Source: Candidatus Methanophaga sp. AG-394-G06 (GTDB taxonomy: Archaea; Halobacteriota; Syntropharchaeia; Alkanophagales; Methanospirareceae). From it: 32,206 bases of DNA. A program made the translations under genes and the position numbers. The DNA lies in contig PRCZ01000015.1 of the NCBI GenBank assembly GCA_009903405.1, forward strand, positions 1 to 32,206, in the 5' to 3' direction. The notes under the pieces are model-generated. The model saw nothing but the letters and a program-made list of their open reading frames with translations. It ran no database searches and was not told where the DNA came from. Shown here piece after piece: positions 1-24,345 of the stretch; the stretch's first letter is position 1, and each line of letters begins with the position of its first letter.

Positions 1-1
1 T

Positions 2-346
2 GAAGAATTTTTGTTTGGATTTGAAGGTGCCACACCATTGGTTGGGGACATCAATCAGGATGGAACAGATGACATAGCAGTAATCGGTACATACGGCGGG
101 AATTATAAGTGGTTCGTTGATACGAATGGAGACCAGGTGGCAGATGAAGAATTTTGGTTTGGATTTGCAGGTGCCATACCTTTGGTTGGGGACATCGATA
201 AGGATGGAACAGATGACATAGCAGTAATCGGTGCATACGGAGGGAATTATAAATGGTTCGTTGCTACGAATGGAGACCATGTGGCAGATGAAGAATTTTG
301 GTTTGGATTTGCAGGATCCATACCATTGGTAGGGAACATCGGATAA
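2..346 (+). CDS. C-terminal fragment of an FG-GAP/VCBS-like repeat protein; 5' end lies outside the window
   Basis: Frame is open from base 2 (EEFLFGFEGATPLVGDINQDGTDDIAVIG...). About 48-aa repeats with DxDxDGxxD calcium-loop motifs. Ends PLVGNIG*, like the 2100-aa protein at 8573-14875. Confidence 0.85.
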   Translation, partial: EEFLFGFEGATPLVGDINQDGTDDIAVIGTYGGNYKWFVDTNGDQVADEEFWFGFAGAIPLVGDIDKDGTDDIAVIGAYGGNYKWFVATNGDHVADEEFWFGFAGSIPLVGNIG

Positions 347-417: not shown

Positions 418-484
418 TGATTTTGCAATATTTTATTATTGAGCAGTTACATTTATTAAATATTACTAATTGGGATTCTACAAG

Positions 485-2135
485 GAGTATATCAAACCTA
501 AATAGATTGATATTTTTGTTTAAATGCCCTATTTAGTGTTGGATTTGTTGAGCGGATATTCAATCCTAAAATTGGTTGATAATCATCACAAAGAGTTTGC
601 CTTTGCACTTTGGATATTAAATCCGATAGTGATTTATATTTCATACATCTTTGGGCAAATAGATATAATCCCCACATTTTTTGTGATATTTGCATTACAT
701 TATGCAAGAAAAGTATATCCAATACTGCTAATTCTTCTGATAATACTATCAATTTCGATGCTATCCTATCTGTTTTAGCATTAGGTATAAGGGTGGGGCA
801 TGTTTTAAAAATTTTCCATTGTTGCTATTGCCAGTTATAATTGTTGTATTGGGAAACAAAAATCTTATAAAACCACTAAAACTTGCTACATTCGGATTTG
901 GTCCTTATATAATCCTGCTTATACCTTTTGCCAGATCAATATCATTTTTTTGTTGGGTGGAGGTAGCCAATACATACTGATTTTTTTTTGATATCGGAAG
1001 TACACACATGTACATATTTTTAGTGGTCTATTTCGCAATATTGTTTTACCTTATATACATAGAGAAAAAGCAATCATTTGATGTAATCTGGGAATACTGC
1101 TTTGCAATAGTTACTTTGCTCTACATATCAGCATTATGGCTCCCGCAATGGTATACATGGATAATGCCCTTTGTAATATTAGCAGTAGTAAAATATCATA
1201 AACCATTAAAACTTTATTTTGTCCAGATTGCATTTTTCTCCTTTTATATCCTAGGGTGGGGTAATTCTCTTGGTGCCGGGTTATTCTCTCCAATAAATCC
1301 AATTTTTAATGATTTTCAAGGCATGAATGAGATCATATCCTCGATTTACCCATATAATAAACTTCTTGGTATATTCTATAGTCTTTTCATAGTTATATCC
1401 GTAGGTCTGGTATATTTAACTTTCAAGAACTCTATATGTACACAAAATTTAGTATATGGACAAAATAATGAGATCATGCCATCAGAATTTAGCTTAATTA
1501 TCCCTGTTTTAATACTCTTTAGTCTATTGCTATCCGCAATCATACTTGGTGGCGGAAGCTACATTGGTCTAGTGCAAGATAAAGTCAATCAACCAGTCGG
1601 TGAAATTTCTGGAATTCCCACTGTGGGGCAAACATTTATTTCCCAGCATGCAAACTTAAATGCAATTGAAATCAACATGGCTACATATATGCGAACAAAT
1701 ACTCATGATGTAATATTCCATTTACGATCATCGCCTAATTCAACAGTAAATATAGTAACTATTAGAGTAAATGCTGCTAAAATCGCTGATAATAAATATC
1801 ATCGGTTTAGTTTCCCCCCAATTACAGATTCGGAGAATATATCCTATTATTTTTTCATAGAGTCACCCAACTCGGCCCCAGGTAACGCTATAACAATAAG
1901 GCATTGTACTAAAGATGTCTATAAAGCAGGTTCCGCATACAAGAATCATGAGCCAATGGAAGGTGATTTGTCATTTAGGAGATATCGTAAGTCGGATATG
2001 TCAAATGTGGCGTCGTATTTCCTGCATCGAATGCAACAAGATATGCTATTTTTCATCTTCTACTTTCTATTACTGGGTACAATTGTTTATTTAATATTGA
2101 AATTACATTTGGATATTAGGATGCTTAAAAAATGA
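485..2135 (+). pseudogene. Frameshifted multi-pass membrane glycosyltransferase-like (GT-C type) gene
   Basis: Consecutive homologous-looking pieces lie in different frames: RLIFLFK / MPYLVLDLLSGYSILKL...WILNPIVIYISYIFGQIDIIPTFFVIFAL (524-778), then GACFKNFPLLLLPVIIVVLGNKNLIKPLKLATFGFGPYIILLIPFARSIS (about 795-945), then the 1008-2135 ORF. They are separated by frameshifts, several next to homopolymers. Confidence 0.65.
1008..2135 (+). CDS. Longest remaining ORF of the broken membrane protein (C-terminal half; TM helices plus a soluble beta-rich domain)
   Basis: 375-aa ORF with several hydrophobic helices and a soluble insert before a last TM helix. Probably the C-terminal part of the pseudogene above. 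Confidence 0.6.
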   Translation: MYIFLVVYFAILFYLIYIEKKQSFDVIWEYCFAIVTLLYISALWLPQWYTWIMPFVILAVVKYHKPLKLYFVQIAFFSFYILGWGNSLGAGLFSPINPIFNDFQGMNEIISSIYPYNKLLGIFYSLFIVISVGLVYLTFKNSICTQNLVYGQNNEIMPSEFSLIIPVLILFSLLLSAIILGGGSYIGLVQDKVNQPVGEISGIPTVGQTFISQHANLNAIEINMATYMRTNTHDVIFHLRSSPNSTVNIVTIRVNAAKIADNKYHRFSFPPITDSENISYYFFIESPNSAPGNAITIRHCTKDVYKAGSAYKNHEPMEGDLSFRRYRKSDMSNVASYFLHRMQQDMLFFIFYFLLLGTIVYLILKLHLDIRMLKK

Positions 2136-3562
2136 GTAAAGTACTGGTGATTTCACCCGATACTATTCCCGTAGGTAAAAATTTAGCTGCGGGACCGGGT
2201 ATTAGAAGTTTTGAGCTTGCAAGAGCCTTGCACAGAAAAGGTCATGAGATAACAATAGCAGTCCCTAAAATCTATTACAATAACGAGAAAATCAAGGAAT
2301 TTAATATTATTGATTGGAATATCTGGGATAAAATGAACCTTGGCGAGATTTGCAACGAGCAAGATTGCGTAATAGTTCCTCAGGGGTTAGGTCTTGCAGA
2401 ATTCTCTTCTCTTTATATAAAATCTGTACGAGATGATCTTCCAACGATCATTGATGCGTATGATCCTAACCTGATAGAGGGTATAAATAGCCTTATTTAC
2501 AGTGAGAAGGAAAATTTACTTTTGTTTTCTAATCATCTCAGTGCACTGGTTCCTTTACTAAAACGGGGCGATTTCTTCGTTTGTGCAACTGAAAGACAGA
2601 AATATTACTATGTTGGAATACTTAATGTGCTTGGAAAGATTAACCCCTTAACGTACAACAAAAAAATGGTAGACATAGTCCCTTTTGGAGTTCCGGAAGA
2701 AGAGCCTGTTCATGAACGGAACGTATTAAAAGGGAAAATCGTTGATGAAAATGATTTGGTTATTTTATGGACCGGTGGTATCTATCCCTGGTTTGATGCT
2801 ATTACGTTAGTAAAAGCTATGGAAAAAGTTGTAACAGAAGTAAAGAATGCTAGGTTAATATTTATGGGCGGAAAACATCCGAGGATGCATGCTCCACCAG
2901 AGAGTTATTATAAAACACAAAAGCTTGTAAAAAAGATTGGGATGTTGAATAAAAATATATTCTTTATTGATCAATGGGTGCCATGGTATGAGATGCAGAA
3001 TTATTTTTTAGAGGCTGATTTAGCAGTTAACACGCATCCCGTACATCTTGAAACCGAACTTTCATTTAGAACCCGGGTAATAAATTATATTTGGGGTGGC
3101 TTACCTATAATCACGACAGGAGGAGACGAGATTAGTGAACTCATAAAAAAATATGGTTGTGGAGAAATCGTAAAACCTGAGGATCCCGATGAGTTAGCGG
3201 AAATTATGGTTGAACTTCTTTCCGATGAGAAGAAACGGAAAAGAATGTCCGAAAATGCAAAAAAGCTTGCTAAGGTGATAACATGGAGTAATACCATAAA
3301 GCCTCTTGATGAATTCTGTAGGAATCCGCACATTGCAGAAGATAGAAAAAATGAGTTTGCCCGAAAAACTGTTCTTTCTGCTGTTGACACCTTACAAGAG
3401 CATAAACTAATGTTAGAAACAGAAGGGATAGATTCAGATGAAAAGACGCGACTACGATTCCTTATTAGAACAGGGACTATATTTAAAAAGTTTGGTCCTG
3501 TTGAAACAGCAAGAAGAGTGAGAGAATACATGCTTAAAACAATTAGAAAAAAACGAGATTAG
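2132..3562 (+). CDS. Glycosyltransferase family 4 (GT-B fold)
   Basis: 476 aa; MSKVLVISPDTIPVGKNLAAGPGIRSFELARALHRKGHEITIAVP N-terminus, ILWTGGIYPWFDAITLVKAM middle, GLPIITTGGDEISELI C-terminal motif. Overlaps the upstream stop (ATGA). Confidence 0.88.
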   Translation: MSKVLVISPDTIPVGKNLAAGPGIRSFELARALHRKGHEITIAVPKIYYNNEKIKEFNIIDWNIWDKMNLGEICNEQDCVIVPQGLGLAEFSSLYIKSVRDDLPTIIDAYDPNLIEGINSLIYSEKENLLLFSNHLSALVPLLKRGDFFVCATERQKYYYVGILNVLGKINPLTYNKKMVDIVPFGVPEEEPVHERNVLKGKIVDENDLVILWTGGIYPWFDAITLVKAMEKVVTEVKNARLIFMGGKHPRMHAPPESYYKTQKLVKKIGMLNKNIFFIDQWVPWYEMQNYFLEADLAVNTHPVHLETELSFRTRVINYIWGGLPIITTGGDEISELIKKYGCGEIVKPEDPDELAEIMVELLSDEKKRKRMSENAKKLAKVITWSNTIKPLDEFCRNPHIAEDRKNEFARKTVLSAVDTLQEHKLMLETEGIDSDEKTRLRFLIRTGTIFKKFGPVETARRVREYMLKTIRKKRD

Positions 3563-4780: not shown

Positions 4781-5818
4781 CTATTCCGGTGGCCCCTCAT
4801 TTGCCTTTTTTAAATCTTCAAAATATTCATTCACTCCTTCTGGGCCTTTTGATTCTATGAAATGTTTTTCACTTTTCTCAATCCATTCTATGCACTCTCT
4901 AAAAGAGATCTGTTTTTTTGGTGCTCTCAATCGTTTAATTGATATTTTGGGCACGTTAAGGATTGCTGATATCTGCCCTTTAACTCCAGCTTTATTTTTT
5001 TCTCTAATGCATTGCTTAAAAAAAAGAAACTCGCTTTTAGCAATTATTTTTGAAAATTTTTTCAGTAACCGTAAAGAATAATTTTTGAATATGACATAAA
5101 GCCTATTTCTGTGCAAATAATATATTTTCATTGGATTCAGGTCATCAACAGTTCCTGAGTGGTGATGATAAACTATGGCTGATGGGACGTATATACACTT
5201 CCATCCAGTTAAACGCATTCTCCACATTAAATCAACATCTTCATACCAGGTGAACAAATCTTTATCAAATAATCCGATCTCATCCAACATTCTCTTCTTA
5301 TAAAATCCTGCACCTGCGGTCACGCCAAAAATTTCTTCTTGTTCATCATATTGTCCACGGTCTATCGAATAAAAGCCCTTTCCCATTGCATCACCGGTTC
5401 TTAAAATAAGCTCTCCAACAGAATCAATTCTTTTTTGATTATTTAAAAAAAGTACTTTTGATGCACAAGAACCAATATGATCATCTTTTTCGGCTACTTT
5501 TACTAATTCCTCTATCCATCTTTCATCTACTTTTGTATCCGGATTTAATGTAACTATATATTTCCCTTTTGCCTGCCTCATTGCGACATTATTTCCTTCA
5601 GCAAAACCAAGATTCCTCTCATTTTGAATCACCTTAACAGTAGGAAAATTCTGTCTTACATATTCCGCGGAGCCATCAGAAGAAGCATTGTCTGTTAAAA
5701 ACACTTCTAGGTTTGGATAAGTCTGTGAGAGGACAGAGGATAGACAATCCTCCAAATATCTTTTGTTATTCCAACATATAACCACGATGGATACTAAGGG
5801 TGTTTCCATACCAATCAC
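4781..5818 (-). CDS. Glycosyltransferase family 2
   Basis: 345 aa; VSIVVICWNNKRYLEDCLSSVLSQTYPNLEVFLTDNASSDGSAEYV, ...LNPDTKVDERWIEEL, typical GT2 A-fold motifs. Confidence 0.9.
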   Translation of the reverse strand: MIGMETPLVSIVVICWNNKRYLEDCLSSVLSQTYPNLEVFLTDNASSDGSAEYVRQNFPTVKVIQNERNLGFAEGNNVAMRQAKGKYIVTLNPDTKVDERWIEELVKVAEKDDHIGSCASKVLFLNNQKRIDSVGELILRTGDAMGKGFYSIDRGQYDEQEEIFGVTAGAGFYKKRMLDEIGLFDKDLFTWYEDVDLMWRMRLTGWKCIYVPSAIVYHHHSGTVDDLNPMKIYYLHRNRLYVIFKNYSLRLLKKFSKIIAKSEFLFFKQCIREKNKAGVKGQISAILNVPKISIKRLRAPKKQISFRECIEWIEKSEKHFIESKGPEGVNEYFEDLKKANEGPPE

Positions 5819-7170
5819 TCGGTTCTTTTTATTTTTACTACTTTATTGTATATTCTAAAGAGTTTTGAATTATATATTTGATTTAAAACGTTTTCAAGGT
5901 CTGCTATCTGTTTCTCTTTGTCTCCCAGCACTTTCTCAAGATTTCTGGTATGATCATTTTGTTTTATTATTAGACTCTCTTTCTCTCCTAAAACTGTTTC
6001 AACATCCGCTATGTGCTTCTCCCTATCTTCCAGCACTTTCTCAAGATTTCTGGTATGATCATTTTGTTTTATTATTAGACTCTCTTTCTCTCCTAAAACT
6101 GTTTCAACATCCGCTATGTGCTTCTCCCTATCTTCCAGCACTTTCTCAAGATTTCTGGTATGATCATTTTGTTTTATTATTAGACTCTCTTTCTCTCCTA
6201 AAACTGTTTCAACATCCGCTATGTGCTTCTCCCTATCTTCCAGCACTTTCTCAAGATTTCTGGTATGATCATTTTGTTTTATTATTAGACTCTCTTTCTC
6301 TCCTAAAACTGTTTCAACCTCTTGTATGCGTTTCTCTTTCACGTGAAGTTGTTTAACCATAGAAATGTTAGATAAAACAGAAATCGTATCGAAGAACTTT
6401 AGCATAGTAACATCTGTTGTTTCACTCTCGGTTATCTCAAACTCATTTTTGATAAAATCCTGTTTTAATCCTTTTTTAGAGATCACAAACACTTTTCGAT
6501 AACTCGGTGATGAATGATCAAATTCATAGAAGTTCTGATTATAGAAACTATCCACATACTTATGTAATTGTTCAGAATATGGTATAGATAGTAAATAATG
6601 TTTTATCACCATCATAGCCAACCAATTATGTATGTTGCCACTAGAAAAAAAGATATGTTCCGCCTTTAATTTTTTAAGTGTGGCTGTTACCTCTTGTAGC
6701 TTGGGCAGACCATTAGTAATATGTTCTTTTAGTGCAGGATGTTCTATCCCTAACAATTGAAGGATGACTTCGTATAGGAATTTATCCGCCAACGAGGTCA
6801 TTCCACCATCAAATGGTGCTATGATTATTACATTATCCTTACTTGTTCTTATAAGTTCAGCGATAAATTGGTCTCTATCTTTTGGCTTGATATGTTCCAT
6901 AGTGTCGGCTGTAACGACTATATCAAAAGCGGAATCTTTAAAAGGTAAATATACGCCACTGCCTCTAATAAAATTAGATGTCTTTTCGTTTATGCTGTTG
7001 ATATAATATGATTCTGCATCAGGAATAAATTTACGTATCAGGTTATTTTCTCCGCCTACATCTAAAACTCGTATTTTTTCATGCCCATATAACTTCTTAA
7101 CTATAATTTGAATGTCCTTATAACGTTGATACATATCAAAGGGAAGCTCGAATATATTTTCCTTTCTCAT
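5815..7170 (-). CDS. SAM-dependent methyltransferase with a long C-terminal heptad-repeat coiled coil
   Basis: IRVLDVGGENN...FDIVVTADTMEHI SAM-MTase motifs, then four copies of ETVLGEKESLIIKQNDHTRNLEKVLEDREKHIADV and a tail QIYNSKLFRIYNKVVKIKR. 4-bp overlap with the next gene. Confidence 0.85.
   Translation of the reverse strand: MRKENIFELPFDMYQRYKDIQIIVKKLYGHEKIRVLDVGGENNLIRKFIPDAESYYINSINEKTSNFIRGSGVYLPFKDSAFDIVVTADTMEHIKPKDRDQFIAELIRTSKDNVIIIAPFDGGMTSLADKFLYEVILQLLGIEHPALKEHITNGLPKLQEVTATLKKLKAEHIFFSSGNIHNWLAMMVIKHYLLSIPYSEQLHKYVDSFYNQNFYEFDHSSPSYRKVFVISKKGLKQDFIKNEFEITESETTDVTMLKFFDTISVLSNISMVKQLHVKEKRIQEVETVLGEKESLIIKQNDHTRNLEKVLEDREKHIADVETVLGEKESLIIKQNDHTRNLEKVLEDREKHIADVETVLGEKESLIIKQNDHTRNLEKVLEDREKHIADVETVLGEKESLIIKQNDHTRNLEKVLGDKEKQIADLENVLNQIYNSKLFRIYNKVVKIKRTE
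5899..6318 (-). repeat. 105-bp tandem repeat (35 aa = 5 heptads), 3 perfect copies plus 1 partly diverged copy
   Basis: Units 6004-6108, 6109-6213 and 6214-6318 appear identical; unit 5899-6003 diverges only at one end. Confidence 0.95.
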
Positions 7171-8572: not shown

Positions 8573-9250
8573 TTATCCGATGTCCCCAACAAGGGGTGTG
8601 GCACCTGCAAATCCAAACCAGAAGACTTGATCAGCCGTCTTGTCGAAATTCGTGTCTACGAACCACATATAATTCCCGCCGTATGCATTGACAATGGCTA
8701 TGTCATCTGTTCCATCTTGATCAATGTCCCCAACCAATGGTATTGCACCTTCAAATCCAAACCAAAATTCTTCATCTACCACATGGTCCCCATTCGTATC
8801 AACGAACCACATATAATTCCCGCCGTATGCATTGACAATGGCTATGTCATCTGTTCCATCTTGATCAATGTCCCCAACCAATGGTATTGCACCTTCAAAT
8901 CCAAACCAAAATTCTTCATCTACCACATGGTCCCCATTCGTATCAACGAACCACATATAATTCCCGCCGTATGCATTGACAATGGCTATGTCATCTGTTC
9001 CATCTTGATCAATGTCCCCAACCAATGGTATTGCACCTTCAAATCCAAACCAAAATTCTTCATCTGCTACATGGTCCCCATTCGTATCAACGAACCATCT
9101 ATAATTCCCACCGTATGCACCGACAATGGCTATGTCATCGGTGCCATCCTGATCGATGTCTCCAACGAGTGGTGCGGCACCAGCGAAACCATAGCCAAAG
9201 ACGTCATCTGCCGCATGGTCTCCAGTAGTGTCAACGAACCAAAGACCACC
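8573..9250 (-). repeat. 144-bp tandem repeats encoding 48-aa FG-GAP-like units
   Basis: Units starting at 8771, 8915 and 9059 are spaced exactly 144 bp; 8771-8914 and 8915-9058 look identical, with flanking units partly diverged. Confidence 0.95.
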
Positions 9251-12200
9251 ACTGAACACACCATAGTCCTCCCCTACCGCCTGCCCTCCACATTTGCAAT
9301 TAGAATCGCATATTCCACCACCACAAGAATCTCCTGGTCTTTTACCATCACATGCAGCATCTGCACCACAAGTGGTTGAGTCACAGATTCCTGTATCTGT
9401 ACAAATACTATCCTTACATGTTTTTAGTGTATTACTTGCTGTGCAACCGCAGATAGTTCCATCTGGCTTGTTCTGCGTATCTCCTGTGTCTATCCATTGC
9501 GTATCCGTGACGCTGCCCGTGCAAGTACCATCTGAACACGTGTAATCGTGGTATTCCTGCTCCTTCTGCTTCTTCTCCTTGCAGTCATTCTCCAGATCGT
9601 CTACCCATCTCGTCTTACCTGTATCCTTCCAGCCGTCAGTATGCCTATTTGAGTGTGTGTAGTCACAGCCCACTTCATTGCTCTTGCAATAATAGTCCCT
9701 TTCTTCGCACCCATCACCATACGGATAGCAACCATCTTTTTCCGTGCAGTTTTCACAATTCGGGTAAATGCCGCAACTGGTATTTGTGCCTTCACACTCT
9801 GGCTTGTCAACACATTTGCAAGTAGAATTGCATATTCTACCAGGACCACAAGATTCCCCTGGCTCCTTGCCATCGCACGCAACATCCGCACTGCAATTAG
9901 TCGAGTTGCAAATTCCGGTATCTGTACAAGTACCCTCATAACATGTCTTAAGGGTGTTATTCGCGGTGCAACCGCATATAGTCCCCTCTGGCTTGTTCTG
10001 CGTATCTCCTGTGTCTATCCATTGCGTATCCGTGACGCTGTACGTGCAAGTACCATCTGAACACGTGTAATCGTGGTATTCCTGCTCCTTCTGCTTCTTC
10101 TCCTTGCAGTCATTCTCTGGATCGTCTATCCATCTTGTGTTACCGGTATCTATCCACTCGTCAGTATGCCTATTTGAGTAAGTATAGTCACAACCCTCGT
10201 CATTGCTAACGCAATAATAATTCCTTTCTTCGCAACCATTACCATACAGATAGCAACCATCATCTTCATTGCAATTTTCGCAATTTGGGTAGATGCCACA
10301 ACTGGTAGCAGTGCCTTCACATATAGGGCCTTCGTAATATCTCTTCAAGAATTCATTCCACTGGGTATCAATAGCAAATGCAGTATTGTCATAAGAGGCT
10401 AAATAATCACCTTCTACTCGCGGATAGTATATGGATAATCCATGATCATTTGGTACGGATAATCCATGCGCCTCCTCATACACAGCAACCCCCATACTAT
10501 TCATCACCGCCTGCGCCTGTGTTCTAGCACCTGGAACATATGTATCCACCATTTCGGCAAAATTATATAGGTCAATGTAATAGTTATAATAAATTTCTGC
10601 TGCTGCGTTTCTAGCTTCTTGTACATCTGCCACATGACCCCCATTGATTTCCGTCATTAATGCTTGTGCAAGGTTATCAACTGCTGCAACTAAATTTGGC
10701 AATGCACTATTATCCATGGCAGATTGCGTTAGATCATTGTACGTTGGATATGATGCCATGTAACGGTCAACGATTACCATACCTAACGCGTCCTCATTCA
10801 TTGTTGGCGTTACCGTCAAATCCGCGAGTATCGTATCATACGGCCATCCATCCCACGGTTCCACCTCCTCAGAGCCAACACTTACGCCTGCATTAGCCAT
10901 CACTTGATATACTACCTCAATCATATGCATCAAACAGGCATCGTAACCAAGCAGTTGGACATATTTACCCGTCAAGGCTACTTCGGTTTCTTGCAGGGTG
11001 AGAGAGTCACTACCATTCGTGAAATCCCAGCAAATCCCGCGACTCAATCCAGCATCTTTCGCGTCTTTTATGTCAGCCGCCCACGGAACCCACGTATTTA
11101 TGGATCTCCAGCCATCACCGTGATTCCATAGGATCAGGGCGTAATTATCAGCAGGAAAGTTAGTCATTGCCCAATCCACGAAATCACTTAATGTATTGGG
11201 ATCGCCCATATTACATTCTCCAAGGTCTATTAGTGCATTCGCTGGCATAGGTGTCATCCCGTATGTTACATGGAATCGCTTACAGCCCGTCCAATCACCA
11301 TATGAAGTGTCATAGCCCGGTATTCGGTCAAATTGCACTACTATATTCACATCACTGGTAGAGCCGACAGAAGACATTTCCAGGAAGTCATCAATTCCTG
11401 CTCCTTCTAAGTTGTTATCTCCATCAAGATAGACCATGTATGTCCATAATGATTCTGGATACGGCACCACATTTACCGTAACGGTGAAAGTTTCACTTCC
11501 CCCATTTGAACTAATTGTAATGTCACAGGTATGAAAACCTTCAGATAATCCTGTTGTGTCAATATCAACTGTAATAGTACCATGTTCCCCGGTAGAAGAG
11601 CCACTTATTGGATAGACATTCAACCAGCCACCGCTTTCACTCAGAGAATAAGTAAGAGTGCCAGTTCCGGAATTCCAGAGTTCAAATGTTGCACTATCCG
11701 TTTCTCCTTCGCACTTATCGCCAAAGTTATGTGATGCTGGGGAATAGGATAACTCTGGACACGGAATGTAGTAGTCAAACCATGCTTTTATAGTACCATC
11801 ACCACTAACAGTCGCGGTAGTTGACTGAGAGTATAGATTTGCTACGCTCATACCATCGGTTGTAGACCAGTGATTAAACTCATAGTTAGATGCGGGATTT
11901 GCAGATACAGAATAAGTGCCATCTGTCTTTGTTGTACTCTGTCCATTGCTGTAAATAGAGCCATCAAAGGTTATTGTTCCTCCAGCAGTAGGATCCGTAT
12001 AGAATGTTATTGTGCGCTGTGGAGGAATAGGACTTAGTGTTGCATAAACGTAAGAAGTTTCACCAGCGGTTACCCCTACATTACTTGACCAATCATAGTA
12101 TCCTCCAAGGGTAAGTTTGAGCGTATGCGTGCCGGCAGGGACATTAGTAATAGTGTAGGGTGTTTGTCCCCCTATATATGAGCCATCGAGGTATATAGTG

Positions 12201-14875
12201 GCACCAGAAGGAGTAGAAGTGACTGAGATAGACCCTGTTGCTGCTACTATGTTCACTGTGACTGTGAACGTTCCACTTCCACCATTTGAACTAATAGAAA
12301 TATCGCATGTATGAGAACCTTCAGATAAGCCCGTTGTGTCCATGTCAACTGTTATAGTATTATGTTCACCAGTAGAAGAGCCGCTTGTTGGATGGACTTC
12401 CAGCCAATCACAACTCTCACTCAAAAAATATGTTAGTGCGCCTGTTCTTGAGTTCCAGAGTTCAAATGTTGTGCTGTCCGTATTTCCTTCGCACATATCG
12501 CCAAAATCATGTGATGCCGGCGAATATGATAACTCTGGACACGGAGGTCTTGTAATAGGGAGCTCGCCAGTGTATCCATCATACAATTGCGGATGCTGCG
12601 TTGATATAATATCTAGAACCCGCGGCTCTGCATACACGAACGTTTCTTCCGCTGAACAGATATTGTCTCCATTCCCTTCTGCATCAGCACATCCTTGGAG
12701 TCCCTCAATAACGTAATATGAAAAGAGACCGTTCTCTAACTCATAGATTTCATATGAATATTCATCGTCGTCACATGCCATTAGCACTACACGCCCAGCA
12801 TCGCCCATGTCCCTTCCTGTACTCTGAATGTCTTTGGCAAAACCATCAGTAAGTTCGACTTTTTGTTTAGGTAGCGTTTTTACACTGCTATCTCTTGTCA
12901 TTCCACCAGCAAAGCAAGTGTCCATGATGACTGCTATGGACGTTGATCCAAGTCTATCGAGTTCTGCATCTAGTTCGTCGTCTCTTATATTGTTAAAGTC
13001 GTACGGACAGAAGAACTCATCGTAGCCATCGAGTTCATCGCCATCGTCATCAATATCGTATGTACCGTGACCAGAGAAGAAGAACAATACCACGTCATCC
13101 GGGTCCTCGTTATCATCCAGCCAGTTAAAGGCTGTTAAAATACCCGCTTTATCTGCTTCACTGTCAAGCAAAAGCCTTATATGATCGGGTTGCCAATAAT
13201 CACCACTTAAAAGCAGCGTATTGTACATGTCAATAGCATCATCATCAGTGTACGCAAGATCATACGATGTGCCCGTATAGTCAGCCACACCGACAATCAC
13301 AGCCCAATAATCTGTTTGGCCATCTGCGTTCTCATTCACCTTTATCCTCCCTGCTACATCCCTCGATGACGGACTTCCACAGGTATTGCTCACCCTGATC
13401 GTATATGGGTAATCGCCGCTGCTGGTGCCCGCTGGTGGAGCTGCAGTTACCGTAAAAGTCTCGCTTGAGCCGGAGGCTATGTCGCCAAGATCCGTTTGGC
13501 TCACACTGAGCCAGGTTGGACCGGATACTTTGCTCACTGTCACACCGTTAACAATGCAGTCACTTGCAGAAACAGTAACGATCTGGCTATCCGACTCACC
13601 ACAATTTAGCGTTGTACTCCAACTCGTTGGATTCACACCCTTGTTGCCACAATGACATGGCATCACATTTACCATGACGGTGAACGTTCCACTTCCATCA
13701 TTCGAATTAATTGTAATATCGCCTGTATGAGAACCTTCAAATAAGCCCGTTGTGTCCATGTCAACCGTTATACTATTATGTTCTCCGGTAGAAGAGCCGC
13801 TTGTTGGATGGACTTCCAGCCAATCACAGGTCTCTCTTAGAGAATAGGTAAGTGTGTCTGTTCCGGAATTCCAGAGTTCAAATGTTGTGTTGTCCGTTTC
13901 TCCTTCGCGCATATCGCCAAACTCATGTGATTCAGGCGAATATGATAACTCTGGTCCAGGATAAATCGTTAAATCCTCCGTATCCTCAGATGACCACGTG
14001 CCATCATCATCTTGCACCTTGAAATAAATCGCGTGTGTTCCTACCGAAAGCTCCGATGCTTGTTTGGTGAAGGCGGCCGAAGTGCTCAACTGTCCATCAA
14101 TACTAGAGCTCCAGTTATATGCCTCCACCGTACCATCGGGATCTGTCCCATGACCTGTGAAGAAAACGGTATCCGTTCCCTGTTCCGCTGGGTCGGTAGT
14201 TATAGAATCAATAATTGCCGTTGGTGTTGGTGTTGGTGTTGGTGTTGGTGTTGATACTGCGGACACCCATACCTTTATACTCTTTGTATTGTCCTTAACA
14301 TTTATTTCGCCATTTAGAATCTCAACTTCACCCTTGACGGAATAAGTCTTTGCAGTGGTCGGAGACCACAAAAAGGTCGTGGTATTGCTCGAACCAGGCG
14401 CTGAAGATATGTATTGTGTTGAGCCTATTTGAGCGCTATCAACATAAACCTTAACAGACACGTTGTCTTCTTGCTGCTCACCTTCATTCGTAACAGTCAC
14501 GTAGATCACTGTTGGTTGCTCGAGATCCGGTGATGAAGGAGTCGTATTGACATTTGTCACCACCATATCATGTGTTGAAGTTGGAGTTGGTTTGGGTCGT
14601 GGCGTAGGTCTCGGTTTCAGCGTTGGCTTTGATATTGGTATTGGAGTCACTTTTATCCGCTCTGTCTTGTTCTTGGTACTGGTATCTGTTTCATCGTCAC
14701 CGCGTACTAATTCCAGATCACCTTTAGGCGATGTAGGTGTTACATTGACATTTGTTGCTGCTATATCTTTGTTAACGTCAGCAACAATCACCTCTGTTGA
14801 TACTATGCCCGTAAACAGCGAGCCTATAACTATCAAAACTGCAATCAAGCCCAAAACCTTCACGCCTTTTTTCAT
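8573..14875 (-). CDS. 2100-aa secreted multidomain protein: signal peptide, CARDB/PKD-like domains, 3 BACON-like repeats, caspase-like (C14) protease, PEGA, InlB-B-like repeat, clostripain-like (C11) protease, duplicated Cys-rich module, FG-GAP-like repeats
   Basis: MKKGVKVLGLIAVLIVIGSLFTGIV leader. Caspase motifs VVLFFFSGHG and VIMDTCFAGG. Clostripain motifs WTYMVYLDGDNNLE, ALILWNHGDGW, LLGYDACLM. PEGA motif GSISVTSTPSGATIYLDGSYIGGQTPYTITNVPAGTHTL. Ends in 48-aa DIDQDGTDDIAIV repeats. Confidence 0.93.
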   Translation of the reverse strand: MKKGVKVLGLIAVLIVIGSLFTGIVSTEVIVADVNKDIAATNVNVTPTSPKGDLELVRGDDETDTSTKNKTERIKVTPIPISKPTLKPRPTPRPKPTPTSTHDMVVTNVNTTPSSPDLEQPTVIYVTVTNEGEQQEDNVSVKVYVDSAQIGSTQYISSAPGSSNTTTFLWSPTTAKTYSVKGEVEILNGEINVKDNTKSIKVWVSAVSTPTPTPTPTPTAIIDSITTDPAEQGTDTVFFTGHGTDPDGTVEAYNWSSSIDGQLSTSAAFTKQASELSVGTHAIYFKVQDDDGTWSSEDTEDLTIYPGPELSYSPESHEFGDMREGETDNTTFELWNSGTDTLTYSLRETCDWLEVHPTSGSSTGEHNSITVDMDTTGLFEGSHTGDITINSNDGSGTFTVMVNVMPCHCGNKGVNPTSWSTTLNCGESDSQIVTVSASDCIVNGVTVSKVSGPTWLSVSQTDLGDIASGSSETFTVTAAPPAGTSSGDYPYTIRVSNTCGSPSSRDVAGRIKVNENADGQTDYWAVIVGVADYTGTSYDLAYTDDDAIDMYNTLLLSGDYWQPDHIRLLLDSEADKAGILTAFNWLDDNEDPDDVVLFFFSGHGTYDIDDDGDELDGYDEFFCPYDFNNIRDDELDAELDRLGSTSIAVIMDTCFAGGMTRDSSVKTLPKQKVELTDGFAKDIQSTGRDMGDAGRVVLMACDDDEYSYEIYELENGLFSYYVIEGLQGCADAEGNGDNICSAEETFVYAEPRVLDIISTQHPQLYDGYTGELPITRPPCPELSYSPASHDFGDMCEGNTDSTTFELWNSRTGALTYFLSESCDWLEVHPTSGSSTGEHNTITVDMDTTGLSEGSHTCDISISSNGGSGTFTVTVNIVAATGSISVTSTPSGATIYLDGSYIGGQTPYTITNVPAGTHTLKLTLGGYYDWSSNVGVTAGETSYVYATLSPIPPQRTITFYTDPTAGGTITFDGSIYSNGQSTTKTDGTYSVSANPASNYEFNHWSTTDGMSVANLYSQSTTATVSGDGTIKAWFDYYIPCPELSYSPASHNFGDKCEGETDSATFELWNSGTGTLTYSLSESGGWLNVYPISGSSTGEHGTITVDIDTTGLSEGFHTCDITISSNGGSETFTVTVNVVPYPESLWTYMVYLDGDNNLEGAGIDDFLEMSSVGSTSDVNIVVQFDRIPGYDTSYGDWTGCKRFHVTYGMTPMPANALIDLGECNMGDPNTLSDFVDWAMTNFPADNYALILWNHGDGWRSINTWVPWAADIKDAKDAGLSRGICWDFTNGSDSLTLQETEVALTGKYVQLLGYDACLMHMIEVVYQVMANAGVSVGSEEVEPWDGWPYDTILADLTVTPTMNEDALGMVIVDRYMASYPTYNDLTQSAMDNSALPNLVAAVDNLAQALMTEINGGHVADVQEARNAAAEIYYNYYIDLYNFAEMVDTYVPGARTQAQAVMNSMGVAVYEEAHGLSVPNDHGLSIYYPRVEGDYLASYDNTAFAIDTQWNEFLKRYYEGPICEGTATSCGIYPNCENCNEDDGCYLYGNGCEERNYYCVSNDEGCDYTYSNRHTDEWIDTGNTRWIDDPENDCKEKKQKEQEYHDYTCSDGTCTYSVTDTQWIDTGDTQNKPEGTICGCTANNTLKTCYEGTCTDTGICNSTNCSADVACDGKEPGESCGPGRICNSTCKCVDKPECEGTNTSCGIYPNCENCTEKDGCYPYGDGCEERDYYCKSNEVGCDYTHSNRHTDGWKDTGKTRWVDDLENDCKEKKQKEQEYHDYTCSDGTCTGSVTDTQWIDTGDTQNKPDGTICGCTASNTLKTCKDSICTDTGICDSTTCGADAACDGKRPGDSCGGGICDSNCKCGGQAVGEDYGVFSGGLWFVDTTGDHAADDVFGYGFAGAAPLVGDIDQDGTDDIAIVGAYGGNYRWFVDTNGDHVADEEFWFGFEGAIPLVGDIDQDGTDDIAIVNAYGGNYMWFVDTNGDHVVDEEFWFGFEGAIPLVGDIDQDGTDDIAIVNAYGGNYMWFVDTNGDHVVDEEFWFGFEGAIPLVGDIDQDGTDDIAIVNAYGGNYMWFVDTNFDKTADQVFWFGFAGATPLVGDIG
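9280..10325 (-). repeat. Duplicated Cys-rich module of about 174 aa (about 522 bp)
   Basis: CEGT.TSCGIYPNCENC...DGCY.YG.GCEER.YYC...TICGCTA.NTLKTC...GICDS.C occurs twice in tandem. Confidence 0.9.
14221..14256 (-). repeat. Hexanucleotide (GGTGTT)n microsatellite encoding a Thr-Pro linker
   Basis: TTGGTGTTGGTGTTGGTGTTGGTGTTGGTGTTG, read as TPTPTPTPTPT in the protein. Confidence 0.85.
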
Positions 14876-15417: not shown

Positions 15418-15690
15418 ATGGAAACGCGATATATTCTAACCGACTATGTAGAACAGGCGATGGCATATGCCGTTTATGACAAGTTAGAAGATGGCACATT
15501 CGCCGGGCGGATCCCGCAATGCAAGGGAGTAGTGGCATTTGAAGCAACGTTGCGAGCGTGTGAGAACGAGCTGCGTTCTACCCTAGAGGATTGGATCCTC
15601 GTTGGCCTCAAGTTGGGACATCCTCTACCAGTAATTGCAGCGATTGATCTGAATAAGGAGCCAAGCTATGAGCCGGTGGGTGCCGTGTAA
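15418..15690 (+). CDS. hicB: HicB-family antitoxin
   Basis: YAVYDKLEDGTFAGRIPQCKGVVAFEATLRACENELRSTLEDWILVGLKLGHPLPVI, the HicB-like partial RNase H fold pattern. Overlaps hicA. Confidence 0.85.
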   Translation: METRYILTDYVEQAMAYAVYDKLEDGTFAGRIPQCKGVVAFEATLRACENELRSTLEDWILVGLKLGHPLPVIAAIDLNKEPSYEPVGAV

Positions 15691-16526: not shown

Positions 16527-16934
16527 ATGAGTGGAAATATGGCCGAGGCATTGAGATGGCTAAAGCAGGCAGAAAAGGATTTAGCCAGTGCGCAAAATAG
16601 CCTGGAATCGGGCGATTATGAGTGGGCATGCTTTCAAGCACAACAAAGTGCGGAAAAAGCGTTAAAATCTGTTTTATACTCGAAAGGGTTCAGAAAAATA
16701 ATAACACATTCAATATATGAATTGGTAAAAAAAATAGGGAGCCTGGAAGTTGGATTAATGCGATTCAGAAAAGAGGCGAAAGTTTTGGATAGTGTTTATA
16801 TTCCTAGTCGATATCCCAATGGTATCGCAGGTGATTTAGCACCGTTTGAATACTATGAGAAGGAGGATGCAGAAGAATGCATAAACTATGCAGGATTGAT
16901 ATTGGACGCGGTAATGAAATATATAAAGAAATAG
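16527..16934 (+). CDS. HEPN-domain toxin (HepT-like)
   Basis: ALRWLKQAEKDLASAQNSLESGDYEWACFQAQQSAEKALKSVLYSKGFRKIITHSIYEL; RX4H motif (RKIITH). Confidence 0.9.
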   Translation: MSGNMAEALRWLKQAEKDLASAQNSLESGDYEWACFQAQQSAEKALKSVLYSKGFRKIITHSIYELVKKIGSLEVGLMRFRKEAKVLDSVYIPSRYPNGIAGDLAPFEYYEKEDAEECINYAGLILDAVMKYIKK

Positions 16935-17968: not shown

Positions 17969-18733
17969 TCAAATCACTTCTGCAAATCTTCTTTGCAATC
18001 TCCCGAAAACTAAATGCCCCACTATAAAAACTATGCTTGAAAAGATGAGGACATAGCCAAAATCAATCACATTTGGAAATGCATTGTAAAGCATTACACT
18101 TCTATACATCTCCATTAACCTAGTAATTGGATTTAACATGTAAATAGAAATAATATTCGCAGGGATTATGCTTATTGGATACACAATTGGACTCGCAAAG
18201 AATAGGATATTTACTACCACTTCCCATACCTGGGTCAAATCCCTGTAATAAACAGTAAATGCTGATAGAAACAGGTTCAAGCCATAAACTAATAAGAAAT
18301 ATACTATATGAAGAATTGGAAGCAGTAATATCGGAAAACCTATTCTCACGCCAAAGAAAACTAAAATAGGTATTAAAATGAGCAGTTCAATGAACGAACT
18401 AAAAAAATAGGATAATGTAGTGGTAATAGTAGGTATTTCTCGCGGTATTGATGTCTTCGTCACGATATGTGCTTTATTTGTTATTGACATCATACCTACA
18501 GAAGTACCAATGGATAAAAATCGGAACATAAAAATACCTATTAACAAATAAAATGCGAAGTTCTCCACCTCAAATCTGAATATATTAATAAATACGAAGT
18601 ATAAAACGATAGCAAGCAAAAAAGGACTTAATAGTGACCAGCCCACACCTAATAAAGAACCTCTATATCTCAGTTTAAACTCAGATGCTGTAAGAGTTCT
18701 TATCAAATCCACCTGCTTTAGATAGCTGAACAT
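17969..18733 (-). CDS. Polysaccharide ABC exporter permease (Wzm/TagG-like)
   Basis: 254 aa, 6 TM-like helices, KLRYRGSLLGVGWSLLSPFLLAIVLYFVF typical ABC-2 N-terminus, adjacent to the ATPase. Confidence 0.92.
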   Translation of the reverse strand: MFSYLKQVDLIRTLTASEFKLRYRGSLLGVGWSLLSPFLLAIVLYFVFINIFRFEVENFAFYLLIGIFMFRFLSIGTSVGMMSITNKAHIVTKTSIPREIPTITTTLSYFFSSFIELLILIPILVFFGVRIGFPILLLPILHIVYFLLVYGLNLFLSAFTVYYRDLTQVWEVVVNILFFASPIVYPISIIPANIISIYMLNPITRLMEMYRSVMLYNAFPNVIDFGYVLIFSSIVFIVGHLVFGRLQRRFAEVI

Positions 18734-19847: not shown

Positions 19848-20955
19848 TTACTTCCTCATACAGCTCCAATGTGCTCGTGAGCACACGTTCCAAAGAGAAT
19901 TCATGCCTCACAAGTTCCGCGCCATTTTTAGCCAGTCTCATCCTTAGTTCCTCATCTTCGATTAGTCTCAGCATAGCGTCTGCTATACCCGCCGGATCTT
20001 TAGGTCTTACGACCAGCCCATTCCTTTCGTCCACACAGATGTCCCGAATAGCGCCGACAGTTGTAACAATCACAGGAAGTTTCGCTGACCATGCCTCTAA
20101 TAGCGTTACTGGCAAACCTTCCCAGATGGAAGGCAATATGAATACATCACTTGTGCAATACAATTCCCTCAACTTCTCATCCTCTACACTACCCAAGAAT
20201 GTTACATAATGCCCCAAATTGTTCTCTTCTGTTAAATTTTCCAGTATCGCACGTTGTGACCCATCACCCACCAATAAAATCACAAAATCTTGTGTTTTCG
20301 CCTTTAAAATCCTTGTTGCTTGGATAAGGTATCCGCATCCTTTCTGCTCCTCTAATCTACCCACAAACAAGAACCTGACTTTTTTATCTGCTTTTATTAC
20401 TGCCTCTTCTTTAGCAAATTGCCCTATATCCACACCATTGGGAATATATACGCCATTTTTAATTCCCGCACCTTCAAAAAAAATCAAAATGTTCCTATCA
20501 ACTACAATTATTCTCTTGAATCCGGCGTACTTCAAAAAGAATCTTTCTGCAAATCGCTTTATGAAACTGTATTGCTTGTCGGGAAAGGAAACGCCATGAC
20601 ATGTATTTACAACTGGAATGTGGTATAGTTTGGCTGATATAGCGATAAAAAAACCGAGATCTGCAGAATGCGTATGGATTACATCCGGCTTCAATTTACC
20701 CAAATATTTAAAGCCACTAAAGAACAGGATAAATAAAGATAAAAATCTACGTACTGTTAGTCTATCTAAGTTCGGTGCTTTATCTCGCAGTCCAAACTTA
20801 AATACATTCTCTTGCTCTCTAATCTCAGGACAATTTGGCGTGAGAATGGAAATTTTGTGCCCTAACTTTGTTTGCTCTCTTTCTAAGTTAGAAACGATAA
20901 CGGCATCGCCACCAAAGGCATCAGGATATTTCTTCGTGAGATGAAGTATTCTCAT
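19840..20955 (-). CDS. Glycosyltransferase family 4
   Basis: MRILHLTKKYPDAFGGDAVIVSNLEREQTKLGHKISILTP...VRFLFVGRLEEQKGCGYLIQA...LPSIWEGLPVTLLEAWSAKLPVIVT. Confidence 0.92.
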   Translation of the reverse strand: MRILHLTKKYPDAFGGDAVIVSNLEREQTKLGHKISILTPNCPEIREQENVFKFGLRDKAPNLDRLTVRRFLSLFILFFSGFKYLGKLKPDVIHTHSADLGFFIAISAKLYHIPVVNTCHGVSFPDKQYSFIKRFAERFFLKYAGFKRIIVVDRNILIFFEGAGIKNGVYIPNGVDIGQFAKEEAVIKADKKVRFLFVGRLEEQKGCGYLIQATRILKAKTQDFVILLVGDGSQRAILENLTEENNLGHYVTFLGSVEDEKLRELYCTSDVFILPSIWEGLPVTLLEAWSAKLPVIVTTVGAIRDICVDERNGLVVRPKDPAGIADAMLRLIEDEELRMRLAKNGAELVRHEFSLERVLTSTLELYEEVII

Positions 20956-21446
20956 TTATACGGTTGATAGAACCAATCCCAGGACTTGTTACATCGCTCG
21001 TCATCAGTTCTTCCATTTATTCGCTTTGGTACAATCGTTGGATCATCCCAGGGCCTCCGCTCTTCGTCAGGGTTCTCATAATCATACAACCGGTTCACAA
21101 AATATACCAGATATGCCCGCTCTTCTCCGACTACTTTAAACCCATGCCAATAATGACCGGGTATTCTCACCAATTGCAAATTCTCCCCGGTCGAGACTAT
21201 TTCATCAAGTTCTTCATCATCGTATGCACATATCTTCATTGCTCCTTTCAACACTACAAAGCAATCCACTTGCCCTCTTAAATGTCTGTGCCACGCCCTC
21301 ACCATATCGGGATAGCTTATCGAATGGTTCGCTTGAACAATTTCCTCTTCTATTATATCGTTCCAGTCGCTTCTAAATAGCTCTGTAAAAAATCCACGCT
21401 CGTCTGCAAACCTATTCAATACCTTAACTTCTATTCCTTTTAGCAT
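20952..21446 (-). CDS. rmlC: dTDP-4-dehydrorhamnose 3,5-epimerase-family cupin
   Basis: MLKGIEVKVLNRFADERGFFTELFRSDWNDI...IVQANHSISYPDMVRAWHRH.RGQVDCFVVLKG; position in the rml operon. Confidence 0.8.
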   Translation of the reverse strand: MLKGIEVKVLNRFADERGFFTELFRSDWNDIIEEEIVQANHSISYPDMVRAWHRHLRGQVDCFVVLKGAMKICAYDDEELDEIVSTGENLQLVRIPGHYWHGFKVVGEERAYLVYFVNRLYDYENPDEERRPWDDPTIVPKRINGRTDDERCNKSWDWFYQPYK

Positions 21447-22303
21447 TTTTCCAGCTCCTCTTTTAACAATGTTAATGCAGTATCTAAATAATAAGGCTTT
21501 TCATACAAGCATCTCGATGCTTTTGCGGTATCTAAGGATGAATCCTTCGGGCGCGCGGCAAGCCAGTCCATATCCGCCATCTTCGAGGGTAAAATCAAAT
21601 CCTCATCAAGTCCGAATTTAGTTGCAATTCGTAATGCGAACTCATATCTCGAAACTCGTTCCTTACCCGCCAAGTGAAATATCCCTTTTAGTCTTCGTTC
21701 CGCTATCTCCAGCAGCATCTTCGCTAAGTTCGTGTTTAATGTCGGAGTCACATATTGATCGGTAACAATTTTAATCTTTTCTTTGTTCTTGAGCTCTTTT
21801 ATTTGCCACAACGCAAAGTTAACCTTTCCACTCGCGGGTTTCGCGCCATAGATAACACATGGTCTTGCTATGCAATCGCAATACTGCTCACCCAGTAGTT
21901 TTGTATAGCCATAGTAATCTATTGGATTTGGCTCATCCGCTTCTTTATACCGCCCTTTATCTCCTGAAAATACATAATCTGTTGAAACATAGACGATAAA
22001 AGCGCCCAATTTGGCTGCCAGCTCCGCAATTCTTCTTGTACCTTCTGCATTTATCGTATACGCTAACTCTTTATTTGCTTCACAATCGTCAACGTTCGTA
22101 AGTGCAGCAGTATGAATGATAACCTCCGGTTTTATCCTGGCGATCTGGTCTAAATCAGTATCCTTTGCCAAATCGAGCATTACGGGCACTCCCAATTCCG
22201 GCTTAATATGGCAATACCCCGCATAAATCTCATGCTTGTCAACCGCGATTTCGGCAATTTTACTGCCTACTAATCCACTTCCACCAGTAATAAAAATCCT
22301 CAT
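21440..22303 (-). CDS. rmlD: dTDP-4-dehydrorhamnose reductase
   Basis: MRIFITGGSGLVGSKIAEIA...YVSTDYVFSGDKGRYKEADEPNPIDYYGYTKLLGE. Start at 22303 chosen over 22348. Confidence 0.92.
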   Translation of the reverse strand: MRIFITGGSGLVGSKIAEIAVDKHEIYAGYCHIKPELGVPVMLDLAKDTDLDQIARIKPEVIIHTAALTNVDDCEANKELAYTINAEGTRRIAELAAKLGAFIVYVSTDYVFSGDKGRYKEADEPNPIDYYGYTKLLGEQYCDCIARPCVIYGAKPASGKVNFALWQIKELKNKEKIKIVTDQYVTPTLNTNLAKMLLEIAERRLKGIFHLAGKERVSRYEFALRIATKFGLDEDLILPSKMADMDWLAARPKDSSLDTAKASRCLYEKPYYLDTALTLLKEELEKC

Positions 22304-22304
22304 C

Positions 22305-23291
22305 TTACCACTCCAATTTCCAGGGTGTTGGATGCAATAACTTTTCATCTGCTAACGGCTTCCACCACCATTCATTCTCTAAATACCAGTTTACCGTCTC
22401 TTTTAGCCCTTCTTTAAAACCATATTTCGGCTGGAAGCCCAATCGCCCTATTTTTGATGAGTCCAGGCTGTATCGTATATCGTGTCCAGGTCGGTCTTCT
22501 ACAAACGCTATTAAATCCGTTTTACCCATTATGTCTAGGATTTCATTGACAACCGCTAAATTATCCCACTCCGCCCCACTTGCGATATTGTATATTTCGC
22601 CTTTCTCGCCTCCATCCAGAACTAAATGTATGGCGTCACAGTGATCTCGTACATAAATCCAGTCCCTTACGTTCTTCCCAGTACCATAAATTGGCACTTT
22701 CATATCCAACTCAGCCCTAATTATTGTCTTTGGTATTAACTTCTCCAGAGATTGATAATTGCCATAGTTATTCGTGCATCTTGTAATCGCAGCATTTAGC
22801 CCATAAGTTCTCACATAAGCCAAAACGAACATATCAGCAGATGCTTTGCTCGCGGAATACGGGGAAGAAGGTTTTAGCCCATTGTCCTCATTAAAAGAGC
22901 CTTCCTCTATATCGCCATACACCTCATCCGTGCTCACATGAACAAGCTTTACATCTAAATTGACATTCCGCATTGCTTCTAATATAGTGTAGGTGCCGAT
23001 CACATTGCTTTCTATGAAGGAATAGGGACTGGATATGCTCCTGTCAACATGCGTCTCCGCAGCAAAGTTCACTATCGCATCCGTATTCTTAACAAGTTTA
23101 GACATCAACTCATAATCGCAGATATTGCCTTTAACAAATTTATACTCCAACTCTTTTAAGTTGCTCTCGTTAGACCCATATTTCTGGGCATCTATCACTA
23201 CAAATTCAAAAGCGCCCGCTTCTTCGCTCATATGCCGTATGAAATTGCTACCTATGAATCCCAATCCGCCAGTTACAAGTATTTTCATCAT
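22305..23291 (-). CDS. rmlB: dTDP-glucose 4,6-dehydratase
   Basis: MKILVTGGLGFIGSNFIRHM...AAETHVDRSISSPYSFIESNVIGTYTILEA...VSTDEVYGDIEEGSF...PSSPYSASKASADMFVLAY. Confidence 0.95.
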   Translation of the reverse strand: MMKILVTGGLGFIGSNFIRHMSEEAGAFEFVVIDAQKYGSNESNLKELEYKFVKGNICDYELMSKLVKNTDAIVNFAAETHVDRSISSPYSFIESNVIGTYTILEAMRNVNLDVKLVHVSTDEVYGDIEEGSFNEDNGLKPSSPYSASKASADMFVLAYVRTYGLNAAITRCTNNYGNYQSLEKLIPKTIIRAELDMKVPIYGTGKNVRDWIYVRDHCDAIHLVLDGGEKGEIYNIASGAEWDNLAVVNEILDIMGKTDLIAFVEDRPGHDIRYSLDSSKIGRLGFQPKYGFKEGLKETVNWYLENEWWWKPLADEKLLHPTPWKLEW

Positions 23292-23292
23292 T

Positions 23293-24345
23293 TTAGCCTA
23301 CTATTTCTGAGTCATCACCCACGATTAACTTCCTGCCATTTGGCAATTCTTCTCGCCTTCGTATCTTCACCTCCTTCCCTATCAAACTCTCAATTATTCT
23401 GCCTCCGCCTAATATTTCTGAGTTATCCATTACAATCGAATCTTCTATCTCTGTATCTTCTATTACACAGTTATTCCCGACACTTGTGTACGGCCCTATA
23501 TAAGAATTTTTTATTATGCAACCCCCGCCAACTAAAGAAGGCCCCTTAACAATGCTGTCTTTAACCTCTACGCCTTTTTCAATAATAACCCGTCCTATTA
23601 TTCTTGAGTCCTTCGCGGTCCCCTCATTCTTCATTTGGATGCCATCTAAAATCAACCTGTTAGCTTCCAGAATATCTTCTGTTTTTCCTGTATCTTTCCA
23701 CCAGCCTTCTACCTTTGTCCAACCTACATTGTAGCCATTATCAATGAGCCATTGAATCGCATCAGTAATCTCAAGCTCATTCCTCCACGAAGGTTTTATT
23801 CTTTTACACGCTTCCAATATGACCGGCTTGAAGAAGTAAATGCCTACCAGAGCCAGATTACTTGGTGGGTCTTTTGGCTTTTCTATGAGTCTTTTAATTG
23901 TTCCATCGTCATTAAGTTCCGCAATACCAAACTGCCGCGGATTTTCTACTTCTGTAAGCATTATACTCGCATCATTTTTGTTCTCTTCAAATTTCTTAGC
24001 GTGTTTTTCTATCCCTTCTCTTAATATGTTATCACCTAAATACATGACAAAGGGTTCGTCCAGAAACTCTTCAGCAACGAGGATTGTATGTGCTAATCCT
24101 TTTGGTTCTTCTTGATAGATGAAATCAATCCCCGCATCCCAGTTCTCTGACTCCACAGTCGCCCTAACCTGCTCTTTATTGGGTCCTACGATGATTCCTA
24201 TCTCCTTCGCTCCTGCTTCAATTACGTCCTCAAGAGCATAAAATAAAATCGGCTTATTCGCAATGGGAATCAACTGCTTTTGTTGTGAATAAGTCAAAGG
24301 GCGAAGTCTTGTGCCATGTCCACCCGAGAGTATCAATCCCTTCAT
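23293..24345 (-). CDS. rmlA: Glucose-1-phosphate thymidylyltransferase, long form with C-terminal left-handed beta-helix
   Basis: MKGLILSGGHGTRLRPLTYSQQKQLIPIANKPILFYALEDVIEAGAKEIGIIVGP; hexapeptide-like repeats at the C-terminus. Confidence 0.95.
   Translation of the reverse strand: MKGLILSGGHGTRLRPLTYSQQKQLIPIANKPILFYALEDVIEAGAKEIGIIVGPNKEQVRATVESENWDAGIDFIYQEEPKGLAHTILVAEEFLDEPFVMYLGDNILREGIEKHAKKFEENKNDASIMLTEVENPRQFGIAELNDDGTIKRLIEKPKDPPSNLALVGIYFFKPVILEACKRIKPSWRNELEITDAIQWLIDNGYNVGWTKVEGWWKDTGKTEDILEANRLILDGIQMKNEGTAKDSRIIGRVIIEKGVEVKDSIVKGPSLVGGGCIIKNSYIGPYTSVGNNCVIEDTEIEDSIVMDNSEILGGGRIIESLIGKEVKIRRREELPNGRKLIVGDDSEIVG

What the first reader, a model, noticed from the sequence alone, without database searches (positions are those of the whole stretch)
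5815..7170. Methyltransferase with perfect five-heptad DNA repeats: candidate chain-length ruler
Seen: a SAM methyltransferase domain is followed by a coiled coil built of 35-aa units (exactly 5 heptads, 105 bp), three identical at DNA level and a fourth nearly so. A basic/amphipathic tail follows (NSKLFRIYNKVVKIKR). A Wzm/Wzt-type exporter lies about 10 kb away in the window. Known: in E. coli O9a, WbdD caps the chain by methylation/phosphorylation and its coiled-coil length acts as a molecular ruler for O-antigen length. Inference: slippage or recombination among perfect repeats would change coil length in whole heptads and so retune surface glycan length without breaking register. Caveat: the Wzt-like protein here lacks the C-terminal carbohydrate-binding domain used in the WbdD/O9a system, and no kinase domain is visible.
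Basis: partly seen in the sequence, partly recalled or inferred. Interest (0 to 1): 0.75.

Follow-up and report, generated by a model that had tools for sequence, protein, structure and literature searches.

The report
Archaeal glycan cap enzyme, repeat-built spacer
A methane-oxidising archaeon carries a relative of the bacterial enzymes that stop surface sugar chains at a set length, and the rod thought to measure that length is built of near-perfect DNA repeats that could lengthen or shorten it in whole steps; the kind of enzyme is known, but the archaeal setting, the repeats and an exporter without the usual end-recognising domain are unusual.

Summary
Window 5815-7170 (minus strand) encodes a 451-aa class I SAM methyltransferase followed by a predicted ~180-residue helix containing four 35-aa units; copies 1-3 are identical at DNA level, copy 4 differs only in its last 26 nt. 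Relatives show what it is. Methyltransferase-coil proteins of this family lie beside Wzm/Wzt glycan exporters in about 20 archaeal and bacterial loci, and many are fused to two GT2 domains, the architecture of Klebsiella O7 ORF6 and WsaE. The nearest relative (L088, 42% identity) has the same stand-alone form in a cluster with wzm-wzt, rml genes and two matching glycosyltransferases. Coil length varies widely in the family and tandem units are mostly 7, 14, 21 or 35 aa, so heptad-wise length change is supported between species, not within a population. Two points weaken a textbook capping mechanism: unusual SAM-pocket residues (D58N, D71S) and a Wzt without the cap-binding domain. Two Archaeoglobales-family genomes with fused homologues, one near-complete, also lack that domain. 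Verdict: probable coiled-coil chain terminator and spacer, an archaeal variant of a known kind. An effect of repeat number on glycan length is untested.

The parts
6466..7170 (-). class I SAM methyltransferase domain, aa 1-235
   Evidence: Pfam Methyltransf_11; AlphaFold model and PDB fold matches to class I methyltransferases
5872..6417 (-). predicted coiled coil, aa 252-433
   Evidence: helix in the model; heptad period 3.50
6214..6318 (-). 35-aa / 105-bp repeat unit 1
   Evidence: identical to units 2 and 3
6109..6213 (-). repeat unit 2
6004..6108 (-). repeat unit 3
5899..6003 (-). repeat unit 4, 8 nt differences in its last 26 nt
5818..5871 (-). basic tail NSKLFRIYNKVVKIKRTE (aa 434-451); same place as the S-x-x-aromatic element that precedes the GT2 region in fused relatives
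   Evidence: alignments; charge and moment
4781..5818 (-). GT2 glycosyltransferase, start overlaps the methyltransferase-coil stop
   Evidence: homologue in the same place in L088
17239..17967 (-). Wzt-like ATPase, 242 aa, no cap-binding domain
   Evidence: 63% identical to L071 Wzt
17969..18733 (-). Wzm-like permease
   Evidence: 66% identical to L071 Wzm
20952..24345 (-). rmlC, rmlD, rmlB, rmlA homologues (dTDP-rhamnose pathway by homology)
   Evidence: translations, names from established families; 63-74% identical to genes in L071
2132..3562 (+). GT4-type glycosyltransferase with a homologue downstream of the L088 methyltransferase-coil gene

Best explanation
The gene encodes a stand-alone, coiled-coil chain-terminator-type methyltransferase for a probably rhamnose-containing surface glycan exported by the neighbouring Wzm/Wzt. 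[quoted passage not shown] The tail would dock the coil at the membrane or on a glycosyltransferase, perhaps the GT2 encoded next to it. The coil grew recently by tandem duplication of a five-heptad DNA unit. Shown here: architecture, repeats, family membership, genomic association with wzm/wzt/rml in relatives, coil-length variation between homologues. Inferred: use of this exporter, capping chemistry, ruler action, docking, and any effect of repeat number on glycan length.
For: Wzm/Wzt beside about 20 homologues, Wzt_C in eight of the nine Wzts scanned. Fusion of the same methyltransferase-coil module to GT2-GT2 in archaeal and bacterial relatives, the layout of the proven O7 terminator and of WsaE (PMC11231755, PMC2943079). 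Nearest relative L088 has the same stand-alone form and matching neighbours. Among 53 genomes of the order, the only one with a Wzt_C over cut-off is the one with the other homologue. Long heptad helix. Coil tandem units mostly multiples of 21 nt.
Against: Unusual SAM-pocket residues D58N, D71S, G43N. Wzt without cap-binding domain, although two other genomes show the same pairing. Exporter genes are 10 kb away behind an unrelated block. [quoted passage not shown] The nearest relative is only 42% identical.
Confidence: 0.58

Rival explanations
1. The protein acts in the same glycan pathway, but chain length is set by the ratio of exporter to polymerase, as reported for Klebsiella O2a. The coil is only a tether or oligomerisation module, and the repeats are near-neutral tandem growth.
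For: Wzt lacks the cap-binding domain, as in Klebsiella O1/O2. Other coding tandem arrays occur in this genome: two more in the window and two in a 181-kb sample.
Against: Klebsiella O2a has no terminator for chain length; here a terminator-type gene is kept. Coil units across the family are mostly heptad multiples, so coil register is conserved.
Confidence: 0.22
2. The methyltransferase domain has lost catalysis, and the protein is a scaffold that holds glycosyltransferases at the membrane.
For: Three changes at SAM-motif positions; the C-terminal GT2 domains of fused relatives are absent and a GT2 gene follows with a 4-nt overlap.
Against: Position 58 N, 71 S and 43 N each occur in other members; EH 92-93 and EHIxNGLP are intact; the domain models with high confidence.
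Confidence: 0.15
3. A methyltransferase of an unrelated pathway that happens to have a coiled-coil tail.
For: The direct Pfam and NCBIfam matches are generic.
Against: Family-wide linkage to wzm/wzt, fusion to GT2-GT2 and the shared S-x-x-aromatic element after the coil.
Confidence: 0.05

Closest known systems
Klebsiella pneumoniae O7 ORF6 (PMC11231755)
   Same: N-terminal methyltransferase, coiled coil, cluster with wzm, wzt and rml genes; orthologues there are described both with GT modules and ending after the coil
   Different: ORF6 has an added kinase and an Ig-like domain and two GT2 modules on the same chain; the window protein has none of these
WsaE of Geobacillus stearothermophilus (PMC2943079)
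   Same: methyltransferase plus two GT domains next to wzm/wzt in a rhamnan S-layer glycan cluster, as in the archaeal fused relatives
WbdD of E. coli O9a (PMC3482155, PMC5082667)
   Same: stand-alone capping enzyme with a coiled coil and a membrane-facing C-terminus; coil length sets modal O-antigen length
   Different: WbdD has a kinase; no sequence match was found; its Wzt reads the cap, the window's Wzt lacks that domain
Klebsiella O1/O2 exporter (PMC11231755)
   Same: Wzt without a cap-binding module
   Different: no coiled-coil length terminator is reported there

Membership tests
Coiled-coil glycan chain terminators (WbdD / WbbB / O7 ORF6 kind) | N-terminal modifying enzyme joined to an extended coiled coil | tested here: met
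Coiled-coil glycan chain terminators (WbdD / WbbB / O7 ORF6 kind) | gene lies in an ABC-transporter (wzm/wzt) glycan cluster | tested here: met
   window wzm/wzt and rml genes within 17 kb; directly adjacent in most relatives
Coiled-coil glycan chain terminators (WbdD / WbbB / O7 ORF6 kind) | Wzt partner with C-terminal cap-binding domain | tested here: not met
   no PF14524 in the window genome; the MAG is 75% complete; two other genomes with homologues also lack it. The claim is therefore 'works like', with membership open
Coiled-coil glycan chain terminators (WbdD / WbbB / O7 ORF6 kind) | caps the non-reducing end and stops polymerisation | not testable with these tools
   needs biochemistry
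Coiled-coil glycan chain terminators (WbdD / WbbB / O7 ORF6 kind) | coil length sets chain length | not testable with these tools
   only coil-length variation between homologues is shown
WbdD | kinase domain between methyltransferase and coil (O9a type) | tested here: not met
   methyltransferase ends near aa 235, coil starts at 252
WsaE / O7 ORF6 fused type | two GT2 domains after the coil on the same polypeptide | tested here: not met
   window ORF ends after the coil tail; relatives L070, L071, L074, L075, L077 have them
Class I SAM methyltransferase | fold and core motifs | tested here: met
   pocket residues 43, 58 and 71 are atypical

The most novel reading that the evidence does not exclude
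An archaeal glycan-length ruler tuned by gain and loss of DNA-identical heptad-multiple repeats, working with an exporter that does not read the cap, so that the coil and not the transporter's quality check fixes surface glycan length.
Probability: 0.18. Interest if true: 0.85.

Novelty: new variant of a known kind. Interest (0 to 1): 0.55.

Why it matters
Coil rulers are established from a few bacterial O-antigen systems. This family carries the same layout into several archaeal lineages (Methanophagales, Methanoperedens, Methanosarcina, Archaeoglobales), shows widely varying coil lengths with tandem units mostly in heptad multiples, and includes cases that pair a terminator-type enzyme with a Wzt lacking the cap-binding domain. 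If repeat number varies within a population, surface glycan length would be an easily evolvable trait with a countable genetic readout.

Tried and rejected
Recent truncation of a fused methyltransferase-coil-GT2-GT2 gene: considered first, but the tree places the window protein with stand-alone L088, not with the archaeal fused clade. Homology of the 35-aa units of the window and L075: they align in register, but the proteins belong to different subfamilies, so independent arrays are more likely; not proved. WbdD membership by sequence: no match. The first genome-contig scan with the window sequence alone found nothing; the alignment scan succeeded. A strict rule that all coil length changes are heptad multiples: rejected, several exceptions. 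A demonstrably amphipathic tail: not significant against shuffles. The plus-strand ORF 5865-6356 is only the mirror of an in-frame repeat. Copy-number variation within the species could not be examined: one genome per species is held and no metagenome scan was available.

Full report
OBSERVATION. The minus-strand ORF 5815-7170 encodes 451 aa. Its 3' half holds a 105-bp tandem array (TRF score 793, 96% match). Units start at aa 285, 320, 355 and 390. Copies 1-3 are identical; copy 4 matches for 79 nt and then has 8 changes in 26 nt. The exact lag-105 match extends 289 nt. This is the pattern expected when one unit is duplicated in tandem and the distal end keeps an older sequence (inference). 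The coil's hydrophobicity has a sharp period of 3.50 residues, well above shuffles. AlphaFold, with an alignment of 17 family members, gives a confident methyltransferase domain (about aa 5-235) and an almost unbroken helix 252-433, of low confidence around residues 393-413.

HOST. The window is contig C26 of an unnamed archaeal genome. G028, placed in the same genus, corresponds to a deposited Methanophagales (ANME-1) genome: its 6318-bp contig C129 has the same length and the same reading frame as L075.

FAMILY. The window's methyltransferase domain finds one strong relative in its order. Alignment searches find strong homologues in several archaeal lineages and many bacteria. Most archaeal relatives whose gene is complete encode about 1070-1210 aa: methyltransferase, coil, an S-x-x-aromatic element, a linker domain and two GT2 domains; three Methanoperedens-family members are larger and carry an extra N-terminal domain. 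Several bacterial relatives stop after the coil, as the window protein does. A maximum-likelihood tree puts the window next to L088, a stand-alone protein of an Actinomycetota MAG, 42% identical, support 91/80.

NEIGHBOURHOOD. Wzm/Wzt lie beside the methyltransferase-coil gene in about 20 homologous loci, often with overlapping or touching genes; the count was made by eye from the tables. Eight of nine Wzts scanned carry the Wzt_C cap-binding domain; the exception is L071. L088 has rmlB, rmlD, wzm, wzt, the methyltransferase-coil gene, then homologues of the window's GT2 (4781-5818) and GT4 (2132-3562). In the window, reading the minus strand, rmlA-B-D-C, a GT4, wzm and wzt are followed by about 9 kb with toxin-antitoxin-like genes and a giant surface protein, then a methyltransferase, the methyltransferase-coil gene and the GT2. 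The window's Wzm and Wzt are 66% and 63% identical to those of L071, where the fused gene directly follows wzt. That the window gene works with this exporter is likely but inferred.

THE MISSING CAP READER. The window genome has no Wzt_C domain. Neither does G109, a 99%-complete genome in two contigs, nor G267; both have fused homologues. Across 53 genomes of the window's order only G028, which holds the other homologue, has a Wzt_C over cut-off, though on a different contig. PMC11231755 states that all terminated O-polysaccharide examples have the cap-binding module on Wzt, while the Klebsiella O1/O2 exporter lacks it and length there follows exporter-to-synthase stoichiometry. A terminator-type enzyme with a short Wzt departs from that pattern and leaves open how export is coupled.

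COIL LENGTH. From the end of the methyltransferase domain to the tail element the distance runs from 73 to 399 residues in 25 proteins; some bacterial members have an extra domain in this stretch, so their coil proper is shorter. Tandem units found by TRF in coils are 105 nt (window, L075), 42 nt (L070, L076, L077, L095, L121), 63 nt (L079) and 21 nt (L079, L084, L096, L097, L102); exceptions are 24 nt (L085), 54 nt (L094) and a 15-nt pair (L121). Alignment-independent length differences between close pairs include 21, 42, 84 and 21, but also 106, 9, 45 and 33. Alignment gaps fall on multiples of 7 more often than one in seven, although aligning periodic sequence favours this, and related sequences are not independent. 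The fair statement is a strong tendency, not a rule.

CATALYTIC STATE. In a 27-row family alignment position 58 is D in 23 rows and N in the window; position 71 is D in 23 and S in the window; position 43, most often G, is N. Each of these letters also occurs in another member. EH at 92-93 and the EHIxNGLP motif are intact. Activity is plausible but uncertain.

MECHANISM. In WbdD, coil insertions and truncations shift modal chain length (PMC5082667), and the O7 terminator has a coil between cap enzyme and polymerase (PMC11231755). The best-supported model is capping methylation by a head that the coil holds away from the polymerase. A 182-residue helix would be about 27 nm long and each 35-aa unit about 5 nm (arithmetic at 0.148 nm per residue; inference). 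[quoted passage not shown]).

NOVELTY. The kind of system is known. The archaeal stand-alone member, the DNA-identical repeats and the pairing with a short Wzt make it a variant. A 2019 survey of terminators (Mann et al., Glycobiology, cited in PMC11231755) was not found in the paper searches and was not read, so some relatives may be listed there.

Noticed in passing
8573-14875 (-) and 1-346 (+): A 2100-aa surface protein with caspase-like (C14) and clostripain (C11) domains ends in 144-bp FG-GAP-like repeats; the same repeat family appears at the window's left edge. A related repeat protein lies directly upstream of the homologue in G028 (L003 35-1369).
   Followed up: partly
about 480-1010 (+), ahead of 1008-2135: Hydrophobic fragments in two frames suggest a broken membrane glycosyltransferase-like gene.
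   Followed up: partly
15418-15690 and 16527-17221 (+): HicB-like ORF and a HEPN/MNT-type toxin-antitoxin-like pair between wzt and the giant surface gene; named from appearance only.
   Followed up: no
L119, L120, L121: Methanoperedens-family homologues carry an N-terminal phosphatase/sulfatase-like domain ahead of methyltransferase-coil-GT; assigned by eye.
   Followed up: no
L077: A contig labelled Bacteroidales carries a gene nested among Methanoperedens-group sequences; transfer or a mis-binned contig.
   Followed up: no
G336 family, 34 genomes: The gene family is patchy: 8 of 34 genomes have a match, as expected of exchangeable surface-glycan clusters.
   Followed up: no
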